The translations under genes were made by a program, and so were the position numbers. 29,009 bases of DNA, from the IMG/VR virus record IMGVR_UViG_3300034198_017984, positions 1 to 29,009 of that record; one strand, given 5' to 3'. The DNA comes from a virus. The stretch's first letter is position 1. Each line of letters starts with the position of its first letter. The notes under the pieces were generated by a model. It ran no database searches. It saw nothing but the letters and a program-made list of their open reading frames with translations, and was not told the origin of the DNA. Shown in pieces: positions 7,438 to 17,247 of the stretch.

Positions 7438-7871
7438 TCTTTCCCTCCGAATTGCAGATACATTTTCTCATAAGCTGGTACTGCTTCCACGCCTTCAATA
7501 TTCTCACCATCTTTTAAGATGGCTTCTTTTAATTTAGAATTGTCTAGCTCTAAAGATATTTTTTCTTTAAAAAACTCTTTAGGCACTAGAGTTTTATCGT
7601 AAATATTTATACTTGGAGCTAAAGATTTAAATTGCACCGTTCCTTGAAAGGTCTTAAGATTTTTAGATTTACTAAAGTTTATCTGGCTTCTAGCAAAGAC
7701 TTCTGCTTGAACACTAAACCTTTCCTTTAGCCTTTCTAGGCTTGTTTCTACTTCTTTAAGCATAGCTTCTGATTGAGCTTTAATAGTCTCAATCTCTAGT
7801 TCTGTTTCTCTAATTTTTTTTAAATACCATTCAAGGCTTTTGATATCGTCTATCCTAAATTCTTCGTTCAT
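7434..7871 (-). CDS. Gam/Gp157-like recombination accessory protein
   Basis: 145 aa. Residues ~10-65 are a long coiled coil, then KTFQGTVQFKSLAPSINIYD and LDNSKLKEAILKDGENIEGVEA. This two-part layout, coiled coil followed by a small beta domain with a DxxxLKExLkxGExixG-like end, is shared by Mu Gam-type DNA-end binders and siphovirus Gp157 proteins. Mu Gam protects linear DNA from RecBCD; Gp157 proteins are linked to recombination modules. Adjacency to ERF supports the call. I cannot separate the two families by eye. Confidence 0.72.
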   Translation of the reverse strand: MNEEFRIDDIKSLEWYLKKIRETELEIETIKAQSEAMLKEVETSLERLKERFSVQAEVFARSQINFSKSKNLKTFQGTVQFKSLAPSINIYDKTLVPKEFFKEKISLELDNSKLKEAILKDGENIEGVEAVPAYEKMYLQFGGKE

Positions 7872-7895
7872 AACTTCCTTTCCTTATTTGTTTTA

Positions 7896-8108
7896 TTAGC
7901 CATCACCAGAGCCATAGCCATAGCCATCGCCATCACCAGAGCCAGAGCCAGAGCCATCGCCATAGCCAGAGCCAGAGCCATTGCCAGAGCCATCGCCATA
8001 GCCAGAGCCAGAGCCATCGCCAGAGCCATAGCCAGAGCCATCACCAGAGCCATAGCCATAGCCAGAGCCAGAGCCATCGCCATAGCCAGAAATAGTATCC
8101 CTAAGCAC
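7896..8108 (-). CDS. Gly-rich low-complexity protein, 32 [S/Y/D/N]-G dipeptides
   Basis: 70 aa: six leading residues, then 32 uninterrupted X-G dipeptides where X is Ser, Tyr, Asp or (once) Asn. The start is GTG at 8108, overlapping the stop of the DUF6948-like gene by 8 nt, with GAGG 6 nt upstream. A second frame of the same DNA is open from 8083 to 7868 (Met/Ala/Leu repeats) and ends in an ATGA overlap with the Gam-like gene; the Gly-rich frame is preferred because it has the SD and coupled start. A frame slip at the upstream stop would fuse the repeat to the DUF6948-like protein. Function unknown. Confidence 0.6.
   Translation of the reverse strand: MLRDTISGYGDGSGSGYGYGSGDGSGYGSGDGSGSGYGDGSGNGSGSGYGDGSGSGSGDGDGYGYGSGDG
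7899..8090. repeat. 32-unit hexanucleotide repeat (192 bp)
   Basis: On the plus strand, exactly 32 tandem hexamers: mostly GCCAGA, GCCATA and GCCATC, with three ACCAGA and one GCCATT. Variation falls almost only in the codon deciding the X of X-G, so the repeat keeps period and frame while the residue order varies. Six-bp units can be gained or lost by slippage without a frameshift. Confidence 0.95.
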
Positions 8109-12052: not shown

Positions 12053-12448
12053 TTAATTCTCTCCCTGCTTGTGCCTTCTGCTTTGAACATGCTCTTTAAC
12101 GATCTTAGAAATTCTCTTTTGTGCTTCTGATTCGTCTATCTCGGGGTTCAAGAGCCTGAAAGCCTCGATCTTTAAAGTTAAGTCCTTGTAGACTGGGTTG
12201 TTTATAGCTGGTGGTAAAGCACAGAATGGGGCCGCAATTTCATTATCCAGCTCTTCATTTAGGATTGTAAATTTACGATCAACGTTATTTAACCAGTGGT
12301 GATGTACTTGCCACTTGAGGATAGCGTTATCAGAATCTTTAACCAGTAAGCCTAGTCTGCGGCTAACATCTTTAATTTTTTCAGCATAATTTAAAAACTC
12401 TCGATGAAGTTCTTTAAGTTCTGCTTGGATTTCTATTAGGTCGTTCAT
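12053..12448 (-). CDS. hypothetical coiled-coil protein
   Basis: 131 aa. N-terminal helix (~3-40) with heptad spacing, a His/Trp-rich middle (WQVHHHWLNN) and a helical C-terminus ending in basic residues. ATGA overlap upstream. No family recognised. Confidence 0.77.
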   Translation of the reverse strand: MNDLIEIQAELKELHREFLNYAEKIKDVSRRLGLLVKDSDNAILKWQVHHHWLNNVDRKFTILNEELDNEIAAPFCALPPAINNPVYKDLTLKIEAFRLLNPEIDESEAQKRISKIVKEHVQSRRHKQGEN

Positions 12449-12639
12449 GGTGTTACCTCTGTTAATTTTTCCAAAAAATCCGCAATTCTATTTAAAACTT
12501 TTAAATTTTCTTCATGCCTCATGTGTCTTAAAAACTCTTCCATGGTTATAGGTTCATAATCTTCAAGGTGTTCTGTATTTAGCCACAACTGACAAAATTC
12601 TTCTAATTTGTCGTTCCATGATTTATATTCATTGTTCAT
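12445..12639 (-). CDS. small acidic protein, unknown function
   Basis: 64 aa, acidic, helical. GGAG precedes the ATG inside the end of the replication gene, with an 11-nt overlap. Could be a small partner of that protein. Unknown. Confidence 0.74.
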   Translation of the reverse strand: MNNEYKSWNDKLEEFCQLWLNTEHLEDYEPITMEEFLRHMRHEENLKVLNRIADFLEKLTEVTP

Positions 12640-14437
12640 TTATTTTTTCTCCTTTTGCTATAAACTGCCAATCACTTTTAGAAAGTTTTATGATAGTACC
12701 AAGAGAGCCTTGCTCCATTTCTTCAAATATCTTGCGTAACTTCTCGGCTTTTTTCTTCTGATCTTTAAAGATTAAGTCCTCGTCATGCTTACGCCATACC
12801 GTAGTGTTTAGTTTATCTATTGTTCTTGCTTCTAATGGAACAGCAAGGATAGCTTTAATTAGCTTCTCTTTTGGAGTCTGTTCATCGCTAATGAATAAGC
12901 TTTTAGCTTGTGCAATGTAGAAAGCTGTAACTAAAAAAGCGTCTGCTGTAGTACTAGAGGATATAGTTTTAGTTCTTAATGGCTTGCCCGAGTAATGGCA
13001 GTTGATCAAGTGCAGGACTACTGCGATACGCTGGAAGAAATTAAAGCACTTACCGATATAGTTTTTCATTGAGTTTGGGGATTCGTTCTTTTCGTCATTC
13101 AAGTATTCAGATACGCAATCAATTTGTGATTCATCCTCAAAAGCAAAATGAACTGGTGCTTCTGATTGTGATTCTTCAATAATTGCTTCATAAAAATTAG
13201 CGATTATAGCTATATCTATTGGTATCTTCTCGGCACGTGGAGTTAATACGGTGTAGTTATTTCTTTCAGTAAAGAATATAAACCTTCCCCAAAATCCATC
13301 ATCAACGCTTAAGGCTCTAAGCCATTCATCCATCTTTGCGGGTTGAATACCACCAGTAAGAGACAACCTAGCCCCGTATGCCTGTTCGCTATCGCTGCTA
13401 ACTGTATGCTTGATGACTGACTGCCCTGCAAGCAATTCAAGTAGGGTATCTTTATCTGAGCCTTGACCTCGCTTATATTCGTTCATCCCTGAAAAGACCC
13501 CGCTAATTTCATCTTTAGCGTAAAGAATCCCATTGGGGTTTAGTGACAATAATTTAATTAAAGCTTCTGTAGTTGCTTTAGTTGTTAGAATTGTTTTTTC
13601 AATAGGCTTTTCTGGTGGGTCTAGTTCGGATCCCTTTTTTTCTAGTTTTTTATACTGATTTAAAGTTTTGTTGTAGATTTTAAGCTCTTCCAGATATTTC
13701 AAGCGATATTCTGATTGTTTGTTTTCAATAGGCTTAGTTAATATTTCGAGATTATCTGACTTGCCAACAGAAGAATCCATATTGACAATAGATGATAGTA
13801 TTGTCTTAACAATTCGACCATCACGGACTAAATAGAAGTGAGAGCCAGCTAAACCCGCAACGATAGAAAGTAAGTGTGTGAATGTTGCCTCAATTGGGAA
13901 ATTGCTGTATGCGTGCGTTGCTACTGATTTTAAGAAACGAAATAAGACTGGTGGAGTTACGCTTGACACGTCTAATTTTCTCGCAGCATGTGACTCTGCG
14001 ATGGCTTTAAAATCAGCACGGGATTTAGGGGTGTTTAACTCCGATAATTCAAGTATCTGCTCAGCTTTAGAGGTAATGACTTCTAAATTATCTGATTCTG
14101 ACATCTCAAAAGCTGTTAACTTTACAGCTCTAGTTTTATAAACTTTAGATATTTCATCTGCATAATATTCGGCATTTGCAACTGAGCCATAATCTATTAA
14201 TTGAACTAGATAAGTTGAGCCACCAATTAAATCTAACTTATCTTTATCTTTTAACTTAGACCTGAGAGTAACTAGATCAATCTCGATTTCATCGAGATAT
14301 AGGCTTATCATTGCCTTATAAATAACTTTATGCTTCTCTGCTTCAAAGAAAGAGTCTTTAGTTAATATTTCATAGACTGTTTCAAAACAAGAGCTATCCT
14401 TGAGAATAGCCCCTAATATTGCTTGTTCCTCGATCAT
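12629..14437 (-). CDS. DnaB N-terminal domain fused to DUF3987 (replication ATPase)
   Basis: 602 aa. Residues ~1-95 match the DnaB helicase N-terminal domain (EEQAILGAIL, LTKDSFF, HKVIYKAM, LIGGSTYLVQL), the part that contacts primase. Residues ~150-550 look like DUF3987, a primase/helicase-associated P-loop family: MDSSVGKS (220-227) is a degenerate Walker A, LYAKDEISGVFSGMNEY a Walker B-like region, and LSLTGGIQPAKM with DGFWGRFIFF the typical later motifs. The RecA-like core of DnaB is absent. It likely initiates or drives phage DNA replication. AAAGGA precedes the start; the ribbon-helix-helix-like gene and the palindrome lie just upstream. Confidence 0.85.
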   Translation of the reverse strand: MIEEQAILGAILKDSSCFETVYEILTKDSFFEAEKHKVIYKAMISLYLDEIEIDLVTLRSKLKDKDKLDLIGGSTYLVQLIDYGSVANAEYYADEISKVYKTRAVKLTAFEMSESDNLEVITSKAEQILELSELNTPKSRADFKAIAESHAARKLDVSSVTPPVLFRFLKSVATHAYSNFPIEATFTHLLSIVAGLAGSHFYLVRDGRIVKTILSSIVNMDSSVGKSDNLEILTKPIENKQSEYRLKYLEELKIYNKTLNQYKKLEKKGSELDPPEKPIEKTILTTKATTEALIKLLSLNPNGILYAKDEISGVFSGMNEYKRGQGSDKDTLLELLAGQSVIKHTVSSDSEQAYGARLSLTGGIQPAKMDEWLRALSVDDGFWGRFIFFTERNNYTVLTPRAEKIPIDIAIIANFYEAIIEESQSEAPVHFAFEDESQIDCVSEYLNDEKNESPNSMKNYIGKCFNFFQRIAVVLHLINCHYSGKPLRTKTISSSTTADAFLVTAFYIAQAKSLFISDEQTPKEKLIKAILAVPLEARTIDKLNTTVWRKHDEDLIFKDQKKKAEKLRKIFEEMEQGSLGTIIKLSKSDWQFIAKGEKINEQ

Positions 14438-14569
14438 TTATTGTCCTTTAGCTAACCAAGCTTTTAATAGCTCCAATAAAAAGTAATCCCAAGTCATCCC
14501 ACTTGGCTTAAAACTTTTAAGTTTCTCAACGCTTTCGGCGTGTAAACTTAATCCTATTTTTTCTCTCAT
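14438..14569 (-). CDS. ribbon-helix-helix-like protein (leftward copy)
   Basis: 43 aa. A short beta-like strand (KIGLSLH), helix (AESVEKLKSF), turn, second helix (GMTWDYFLLELLKAW): the ribbon-helix-helix layout of CopG/Arc-type regulators. The second helix resembles GVTWEYLLKKLLEKV in the protein at 18126-18275, so the two are probably related. It ends directly before the DnaB-N/DUF3987 start. No SD; TGGTAATAT ends 7 nt before the ATG, suggesting a leaderless transcript. A regulator or origin-binding role is inferred. Confidence 0.7.
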   Translation of the reverse strand: MREKIGLSLHAESVEKLKSFKPSGMTWDYFLLELLKAWLAKGQ

Positions 14570-14576
14570 AAAATAA

Positions 14577-14585
14577 ATATTACCA
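14577..14585 (-). promoter_or_regulatory. extended -10 promoter of the ribbon-helix-helix gene
   Basis: TGG-TAATAT (14585-14577) ends 7 nt before the ATG at 14569. TTGACT is present (14600-14595) but only 12 bp from the -10 box. Confidence 0.4.
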
Positions 14586-14655
14586 CCTTTTAATAGTCAA
14601 TAACCTACTAATTAATCTAATTTGTTTTTATGTTGAGTTGTGAGTTTTATTTTTC

Positions 14656-14887
14656 TTCTGTAAGTCCTGTTATTTTCTTTAATGAGTTGCAGGGTCTATA
14701 ATGTATACCTAGTCTCATTATTGGGTATTCTTCTGCATTTCTGCAAGATTACTATAGTATATATATATATTATACTTATTATTATTATAGTATAGAGTGC
14801 AGAAATGCAGAACTAGGTTAAATATAGGCTCTAGGTCTATGTTTTAGACCCTGTAAGTGGTTACAGGAATTGCAAGGACTTGCAGAA
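14656..14887. repeat. 232-bp interrupted palindrome with TTCTGCA iterons, candidate origin or operator
   Basis: Four arm pairs share one centre (14771.5): 14656-14668/14875-14887 (12 of 13), 14687-14698/14845-14856 (11 of 12), 14707-14712/14831-14836 (6 of 6) and 14731-14745/14798-14812 (15 of 15). The core is AT-only over long stretches. TTCTGCA or its complement occurs at 14731, 14739, 14798, 14806 and 14881. Most of the non-coding gap 14570-14993 is this structure; nothing else was seen in it. Confidence 0.8.
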
Positions 14888-14993
14888 AATATTTATCGAA
14901 TCCCCGCCTAGTCCAATGATAGTAGCTCTAGGCTTGCCTATCCAAGTATCCTGAAATTCCAGATAGTTCAAATGTCAAGGATTACTTGACTGT

Positions 14994-16372: not shown

Positions 16373-16421
16373 GATTTTCTCCGATTAGTTGATTAGCTCT
16401 CGCTTAATCTCTATATACCCT

Positions 16422-16430
16422 ATAGTATCA
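16422..16430 (-). promoter_or_regulatory. extended -10 promoter for the leftward operon
   Basis: TGA-TACTAT (16430-16422) without a recognisable -35 box. Start would be near 16415, leaving a ~43-nt leader with an SD before ATG 16372. Confidence 0.45.
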
Positions 16431-16616
16431 TGTTATAACTAAGAATGTGTTGAATATTTAAATTATTTTTGAAATATTTTTATCGAAGACCTATAACCTT
16501 GCTCTAATCAGGTTTTACTTTAAAAGTTTTTTTTAAGATCATTCGTTTGGGGGAGATGATGATAGTTGATACCTTGGGTTTTTGGATTTGGTTTTTTGTT
16601 CGAAAATAAAAAGTAT

Positions 16617-16652
16617 ATTGACCCTCGTCTAGTCATTGACCCTAGTCACTAG
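16617..16652. repeat. ATTGACCCT / CTAGTCA interleaved repeats
   Basis: ATTGACCCT occurs at 16617-16625 and 16635-16643 (18-bp period). CTAGTCA occurs at 16629-16635 and 16642-16648, the second running into CTAG. Looks like a tandem protein-binding site. Confidence 0.6.
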
Positions 16653-16758
16653 ATATCCTTATCAGCTAATCGTATATAACGATTTACTGGTTTCGCTAAA
16701 AGCCACGAAAAACTGACAGATTTAAATTATTTATCAGGAAAACAACGGATATCAAGTC

Positions 16759-16812
16759 AGTCACTTAGATTACTCAAGATAATATAAAGTTATCTTGAAT
16801 ATAAACGTGACT
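16759..16812. repeat. nested inverted repeat
   Basis: Inner perfect 9-bp stem TCAAGATAA (16774-16782) / TTATCTTGA (16790-16798) with loop TATAAAG; outer 6-bp pair AGTCAC (16759-16764) / GTGACT (16807-16812) at nearly the same centre. No T-run follows, so a protein site or cruciform is more likely than a terminator. Confidence 0.6.
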
Positions 16813-17247
16813 CCAAAGCCATTTCTTTTAGTCCGTTAAGATAATAAACAAAAAACACTTAACAGGGGTACCTCTTGATCTCTTGATTTTTTTCAAATTT
16901 CACTGATTAAATGCCTAAAATATTTTTGATACCCCCCCCCTATGCCTGTTATCGTTCCCCCACCACCCCCGTGTCGAGTGCGTATATCCCCATCTACCAC
17001 GAAACATAAAATTTCAAAACCAGTGTAATACATATTAATCAAACAAATACACCCTCAACACTATTCAAAAGCAACACAAAACCCCTTTAAAATCCTCAAG
17101 GTTGAAAGAAAACCACGTCAAAGCTATGACTATCTCAAAAAAGAAAACAAATCAATTTAAAGCGATTTAAATAGGTAATGAATAAACACATAGAAATCCA
17201 TGTTATTAAACCGAAAGACTAGAGTATTCAATGCAGGCTAGTGAGCA

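What the first reader, a model, noticed from the sequence alone, without database searches (positions are those of the whole stretch)
14656..14887. 232-bp palindrome with TTCTGCA iterons next to the replication gene
Four arm pairs share exactly one centre, with five TTCTGCA heptamers placed symmetrically and an AT-rich core. It lies just upstream of the ribbon-helix-helix and DnaB-N/DUF3987 genes. Iterons plus an AT-rich unwinding core fit a replication origin; multi-site repression is the alternative.
Basis: partly seen in the sequence, partly recalled or inferred. Interest (0 to 1): 0.68.

Follow-up and report, generated by a model that had tools for sequence, protein, structure and literature searches.

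The report
Phage replication origin with swappable iterons
A long mirror-image DNA element in an uncultured phage is very probably where its DNA copying starts, and relatives show that its short repeated recognition words are exchanged together with the neighbouring helicase gene, which points to that poorly characterised protein as the one that reads them.

Summary
The palindrome is real: centre 14771.5, 69 of 116 symmetric matches, against a maximum of 57 in 60 block-shuffled windows. Its TTCTGCA words are mirror-placed: five exact plus a sixth with one mismatch. It lies upstream of a small ribbon-helix-helix (RHH)-like ORF (14438-14569) and the DnaB-N/DUF3987 gene (12629-14437).

Six related phages carry an element at the same place with the same plan: iterons pointing inward from both sides onto an AT-rich core. 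There are four iteron types: TTCTGCA (window, L003, L006), TTGTCACA (L019), TTTTCCGTC (L021), TTTTCCGCC (L018, L022).

Iteron type follows the DUF3987 allele (Mantel r=0.98, exact p=0.0002). It does not follow the RHH protein (r=0.17) or a neighbouring conserved 131-aa protein (r=-0.03). Between close relatives, the element and DUF3987 are both replaced while the RHH region between them and both flanks are kept.

This supports the origin reading and argues against the RHH-operator alternative. The best model is a bidirectional origin whose iterons are bound by the DUF3987 protein acting as initiator-helicase, as in SaPI Rep-ori and P4 alpha-ori. Binding and replication start are inferred, not shown. 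A strand-biased excess of G.T pairs in the window's palindrome remains unexplained.

The parts
14656..14887 (.). palindromic element (proposed replication origin), centre 14771.5
14656..14745 (+). left arm (the arm nearer the RHH and DUF3987 genes)
   Evidence: inverted repeat I1
14798..14887 (-). right arm, 70% complementary to the left arm
   Evidence: inverted repeat I1
14656..14662 (+). outer iteron, degenerate (TTCTGTA)
   Evidence: sequence; mirror of 14881-14887
14731..14737 (+). iteron TTCTGCA (proximal pair)
14739..14745 (+). iteron TTCTGCA (proximal pair, 8-bp spacing)
14798..14804 (-). iteron TTCTGCA (proximal pair, other side)
14806..14812 (-). iteron TTCTGCA (proximal pair, other side)
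14881..14887 (-). outer iteron TTCTGCA
14746..14797 (.). AT-rich core between the inner iterons, proposed unwinding element; asymmetric (AAT)n/(AT)n
   Evidence: similar (AAT)n/(AT)n cores in most relatives even when the iterons differ
14696..14702 (+). CTATAAT motif in the arm; CTATAA/TTATAG-type motifs also occur in arms of relatives with other iterons; role unknown
14438..14569 (-). 43-aa ORF resembling a ribbon-helix-helix protein; does not track iteron type
   Evidence: no Pfam match; RHH assignment by eye
12629..14437 (-). DnaB-N/DUF3987 P-loop protein, proposed iteron-binding initiator-helicase
   Evidence: (PF13148 E 7e-38, PF00772 E 7e-24)
14448..14636 (-). RHH ORF and its leader, conserved at DNA level between phages whose iterons and DUF3987 differ
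14915..14991 (-). conserved upstream flank (outer border of the exchanged block)
   Evidence: 95% with L019, 83-86% with L021/L022
12042..12519 (-). conserved downstream flank with the 131-aa ORF (12053-12448), other border of the exchanged block

Best explanation
The element is the phage's replication origin. Copies of a short word (iterons) sit in inverted orientation on both sides of an AT-rich core. The DnaB-N/DUF3987 protein encoded just downstream binds the iterons, assembles as a helicase on each side, melts the core and starts bidirectional replication; its DnaB-type N-terminal domain may recruit host primase. SHOWN by sequence: the architecture, its conservation across four iteron types, and co-exchange of iterons with the DUF3987 gene but not with the RHH gene between them. 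INFERRED: direct binding by the DUF3987 protein, melting of the core, bidirectionality, primase recruitment, and that the 43-aa RHH protein is only a regulator of the operon.
For: (1) Same place, same plan in all seven phages: iterons forward on one side of an 86-94% AT core, reversed on the other; 55 of 62 iterons (allowing 1 mismatch) point inward. (2) Four different iteron types; the three 8-mer types occur almost only in their own elements (one stray TTTCCGCC in the window). (3) Iteron similarity follows DUF3987 identity, r=0.98, exact Mantel p=0.0002, even in degree (TTTTCCGTC vs TTTTCCGCC go with 56-57% identical proteins); RHH r=0.17, 131-aa ORF r=-0.03. (4) Mosaic: between the window and L019/L021 the flanks and the RHH stretch are 73-95% identical, but the element and DUF3987 on its two sides are both replaced. 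(5) Across genomes the window is nearest to L018/L019/L021/L022 (many proteins 78-98%) and far from L003 (mostly 29-62%), yet shares iterons and a 66% identical DUF3987 with L003. (6) Walker A and B motifs are kept in all seven proteins; N-terminus is DnaB-like; C-terminal 88 residues are predicted winged-helix-like at moderate confidence. (7) No separate initiator gene was recognised beside it, unlike an Acinetobacter phage where a DnaB-type helicase follows an annotated replication initiation protein. (8) The element is inverted relative to the gene in L003, tolerable for a symmetric DNA site.
Against: No binding, melting or replication data. GC skew gives no independent support: it follows gene direction and does not switch at the element in the window. 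The winged-helix reading has only weak fold matches (best Foldseek E 0.16), and the full-length model is unusable (pLDDT 38). All domains of DUF3987 track the iterons, so the reading domain cannot be named. Seven phages in only three or four DUF3987 groups is a small sample. The long imperfect symmetry beyond the iterons and the G.T excess on the + strand are not required by this model.
Confidence: 0.84

Rival explanations
1. Multi-site operator for the 43-aa RHH protein, which represses the RHH-DUF3987 operon (RHH proteins of the MetJ/Omega type bind tandem 7-8 bp boxes).
For: The RHH-like ORF is next to the DUF3987 gene in all seven phages; proximal iterons have 8-bp spacing; a repressor gene preceding a replication protein is known in the pRN1 replicon (PMC4234260).
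Against: RHH and iterons are decoupled: the RHH proteins of the window, L019 and L021 are 71-83% identical but the iterons are three different types, while the window and L006 share iterons with RHH proteins of 26% identity; Mantel r=0.17, p=0.22.
Confidence: 0.04
2. A structured RNA (long hairpin) is transcribed from the element, for instance as a primer or regulator.
For: All elements fold well as single strands (z -4.5 to -14); in the window the mismatching pairs are 11-12 G.T to 0-1 A.C on the + strand; arm pairs co-vary.
Against: In L003 and L006 the strand bias is weak (8:6 and 8:4 in the arms); the element is inverted relative to the genes in L003; no Rfam match; no T-run follows the hairpin on either strand (sequence); inverted iterons alone yield hairpins.
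Confidence: 0.06
3. Binding site for another phage protein, such as a partition (centromere-like) site or the operator of a repressor encoded elsewhere that has been exchanged together with DUF3987.
For: Inverted arrays of short boxes also occur at centromeres and operators (general knowledge).
Against: Of the window ORFs compared (0.8-19.4 kb) only DUF3987 is clearly closer to L003/L006 than to the overall nearest relatives; the AT-rich core is kept when iterons change.
Confidence: 0.05
4. Telomere-resolution (protelomerase) or recombination site.
For: Concentric inverted repeats around an AT-rich centre.
Against: The centre is not palindromic in any relative, whereas protelomerase sites have a perfectly palindromic core (general knowledge); the element is internal to the contigs; no recombinase was recognised among the window proteins scanned.
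Confidence: 0.01

Closest known systems
SaPI Rep-ori (staphylococcal pathogenicity islands) and SCCmec Cch2-ori
   Same: A self-loading initiator-helicase recognises short iterons at an origin next to its own gene, proposed as two hexamers; in SaPI Rep and Cch2 the C-terminal domain reads the iterons (PMC7581432).
   Different: Initiator is DnaB-N/DUF3987, not the DUF927 or D5/Primase_Cterm types; the origin lies upstream of the gene, not downstream; long imperfect palindrome beyond the iterons; a phage, not an island.
Phage P4 alpha protein and its origin
   Same: Multifunctional protein binds origin repeats through a winged-helix domain, then unwinds and primes (PMC4234260).
   Different: No Toprim primase domain was found in the present protein; DnaB-like N-terminus instead; iterons not compared with P4's here.
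Herpes simplex oriS/oriL
   Same: Inverted binding boxes for an initiator-helicase on both sides of an AT-rich spacer; folded single-strand form bound by the initiator (PMC12543377).
   Different: Eukaryotic virus, SF2 helicase, three boxes only in oriS; resemblance of layout, no homology.
Lambda ori-O
   Same: Phage iterons beside an AT-rich region, read by a phage initiator encoded at the same place (PMC7466680).
   Different: Lambda iterons lie inside the O gene and on one side of the AT-rich region; O is not a helicase.
Crenarchaeal plasmid pRN1 replicon
   Same: Small repressor gene followed by a multifunctional replication protein; origin with a large stem-loop (PMC4234260).
   Different: No iterons at its origin.

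Membership tests
Iteron-type replication origin with its own initiator | several copies of one short word, concentrated at one place | tested here: met
Iteron-type replication origin with its own initiator | adjacent AT-rich unwinding region | tested here: met
   86-94% A+T over 50 bp in all seven
Iteron-type replication origin with its own initiator | iteron sequence specific to a linked replication protein | tested here: met
   by co-variation: Mantel r=0.98, p=0.0002; binding itself not tested
Iteron-type replication origin with its own initiator | initiator binds iterons and replication starts there | not testable with these tools
   needs EMSA/footprinting and origin mapping
SaPI Rep / Cch family | initiator of DUF927 or D5/Primase_Cterm type | tested here: not met
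   protein matches DnaB-N and DUF3987 only in Pfam
RHH operator array | box sequence follows the RHH protein | tested here: not met
   r=0.17, p=0.22
Structured non-coding RNA | compensatory change with a consistent strand preference | tested here: inconclusive
   co-variation present; strand preference clear only in the window
Structured non-coding RNA | match to a described RNA family | tested here: not met
Protelomerase target site | perfectly palindromic core | tested here: not met
   asymmetric (AAT)n/(AT)n core
Winged-helix origin-binding domain (P4 alpha-like) | C-terminal winged helix | tested here: inconclusive
   predicted helices followed by two strands, pLDDT 75; Foldseek hits to winged-helix proteins but E >= 0.16

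The most novel reading that the evidence does not exclude
The DnaB-N/DUF3987 proteins are a further family of self-loading initiator-helicases. Each reads its own inverted iteron set, so origin and helicase form a unit that phages exchange even around an unchanged gene lying between them; in the TTCTGCA group the whole 230-bp strand additionally folds into a conserved hairpin that takes part in initiation.
Probability: 0.35. Interest if true: 0.75.

Novelty: new variant of a known kind. Interest (0 to 1): 0.62.

Why it matters
DUF3987 is still labelled a domain of unknown function in Pfam and had been predicted only to be a helicase (PMC5862659). The seven phages amount to a natural swap experiment that points to this protein as an origin-reading initiator and supplies four candidate protein-iteron pairs that can be tested directly for specificity. 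It also shows origin-initiator exchange around a retained gene in phages known only from metagenomes.

Tried and rejected
RHH operator array (decoupled). RNA gene (weak strand preference outside the window; no Rfam match, no terminator-like tail). Protelomerase site (asymmetric core). L005, found by an iteron pattern, is a different phage with no 230-bp palindrome. GC skew: follows gene direction, uninformative. DNA similarity of the element to phage and plasmid collections: none. Genome-contig scan with DUF3987 gave only DnaB-N-type partial hits. Terminase query found no relatives in viral contigs. Full-length structure prediction failed. Cultured phages in the collection match only parts of the protein, so no cultured example of the cassette was found. 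Searches were failed attempts (missing file, wrong string length, short term); one search was a first report with misformatted fields.

Full report
THE OBSERVATION. The window is a virus record of 29,009 bp with no isolate. A scan of every possible centre gives 14771.5 as the best by far: 69 of 116 symmetric positions are complementary, next best 55; block-shuffled windows reach at most 57. The arms 14656-14745 and 14798-14887 are 70% complementary. Five exact TTCTGCA words plus one TTCTGTA lie in mirror positions. The core is about 90% A+T and not itself symmetric: (AAT)n on one side, (AT)n on the other. In the two relatives with the same iterons the element is also by far the strongest palindrome of its contig (75 against 53; 81 against 51).

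SURROUNDINGS. The element lies between co-oriented genes on the - strand. Downstream come a 43-aa ORF of ribbon-helix-helix type (14438-14569; assigned by eye, no Pfam match) and a 602-aa protein with DnaB-N and DUF3987 domains (12629-14437). Elsewhere in the window are an ERF annealing protein, RusA, lysozyme, peptidase M15 and a terminase. No separate initiator gene was recognised.

RELATIVES WITH THE SAME ITERONS. DUF3987 searches found two phages in IMG/VR, L003 (66%) and L006 (72%). Both carry the palindrome in the same place. On a three-way alignment 90.1% of the arm cells pair, against 83.9% in shuffles and 41-45% when slid; 22 pairs have changes on both sides against 11.5 in shuffles. 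At variable arm positions the two arms of one phage agree more often (57%) than arms of different phages (43%; 25 columns better, 7 worse). So the arms do not drift independently, though with three sequences gene conversion between arms is as good an explanation as selection on pairing. In L003 the element, core included, is inverted relative to the gene.

RELATIVES WITH OTHER ITERONS. A search with the neighbouring 131-aa protein found four more phages, L018, L019, L021 and L022, whose 131-aa protein is 87-92% identical but whose DUF3987 protein is only 31-34% identical to the window's. Upstream of the same genes they carry the same plan with other words: TTGTCACA (L019), TTTTCCGTC (L021), TTTTCCGCC (L018, L022). 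Over the seven phages 55 of 62 iterons point inward to an 86-94% AT core. The three 8-mer words do not occur elsewhere in the held sequence of the phages that use them.

WHICH PROTEIN READS THE ITERONS. With all 5040 label permutations, iteron similarity follows DUF3987 identity (r=0.98, p=0.0002) but not RHH identity (r=0.17, p=0.22) nor that of the 131-aa protein (r=-0.03, p=0.41) (the result holds with 7-mers, r=0.83 against 0.24 and 0.18). This is not simple linkage: the RHH gene lies between the two and is retained. Between the window and L019 or L021 the upstream flank, the RHH stretch and the downstream region are 73-95% identical at the DNA level, while the element and DUF3987 are replaced. 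Conversely the window is a distant relative of L003 in most other shared proteins (29-62%) yet shares iterons and a 66% DUF3987 with it. The last 25 residues of DUF3987 do not track (r=0.20), which marks a likely exchange border. All other domains track, so the reading domain cannot be named; the C-terminal 88 residues are predicted winged-helix-like (pLDDT 75), with no significant fold match.

MECHANISM. Shown by sequence: architecture, its persistence, co-exchange with DUF3987. Inferred: DUF3987 protein, which keeps Walker A and B motifs, binds the iterons on both sides, forms a helicase on each, melts the core and starts two forks; the DnaB-like N-terminus may recruit host primase. The layout resembles SaPI Rep-ori and SCCmec Cch2, where the initiator-helicase's C-terminal domain reads iterons (PMC7581432), P4 alpha, whose winged helix binds origin repeats (PMC4234260), and herpes oriS with inverted boxes about an AT-rich spacer (PMC12543377). 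It is not a member of the SaPI Rep families by protein type. DUF3987 had been predicted to be a helicase (PMC5862659); in the papers searched no origin had been tied to it, but that library is partial.

WHAT DOES NOT FIT. In the window's palindrome the mismatched arm pairs are 11-12 G.T to 0-1 A.C on the + strand, and that strand folds far better (-98 against -67 kcal/mol). In L003 and L006 the same tendency is weak. The element's + strand is G- and T-rich, which alone favours G.T about two to one (inference from the composition), so chance is possible. A role for a folded single strand is not excluded. GC skew is uninformative.

LIMITS. Seven phages, three or four DUF3987 groups, no cultured member, no experiment. 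The 43-aa RHH assignment rests on pattern reading.

Noticed in passing
window 14656-14887: Mismatched arm pairs are 11-12 G.T to 0-1 A.C on the + strand, so that strand folds much better as single strand; weak in L003 and L006.
   Followed up: partly
L003 (=L004) 1001-1250: The whole palindromic element, core included, is inverted relative to the downstream genes compared with the window and L006.
   Followed up: partly
L022 3634-3657 and 3729-3752: Exact 24-bp duplication (CTTGGATAATCAAGCCTAGAGCTA) of the conserved upstream flank inside the origin element.
   Followed up: no
window 7868-8088: 71-aa ORF made almost wholly of M/A/L residues, on a 6-bp tandem repeat of 32 copies; probably not an ordinary protein gene.
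   Followed up: no
window 16373-17247: About 0.9 kb without a listed ORF of 60 aa or more between the left (-) and right (+) gene blocks, near the GC-skew turn.
   Followed up: no
L005 3095-3200: Another phage with several TGCAAT-like words inside a coding ORF just upstream of a DnaB helicase gene, possibly a lambda-O-like origin within a gene.
   Followed up: no
window 14696-14702; L019, L021 arms: CTATAAT/ATTATAG and CCTAG/CTAGG motifs recur in the arms even when the iterons differ; perhaps sites of a shared or host factor, or -10-like sequences.
   Followed up: partly
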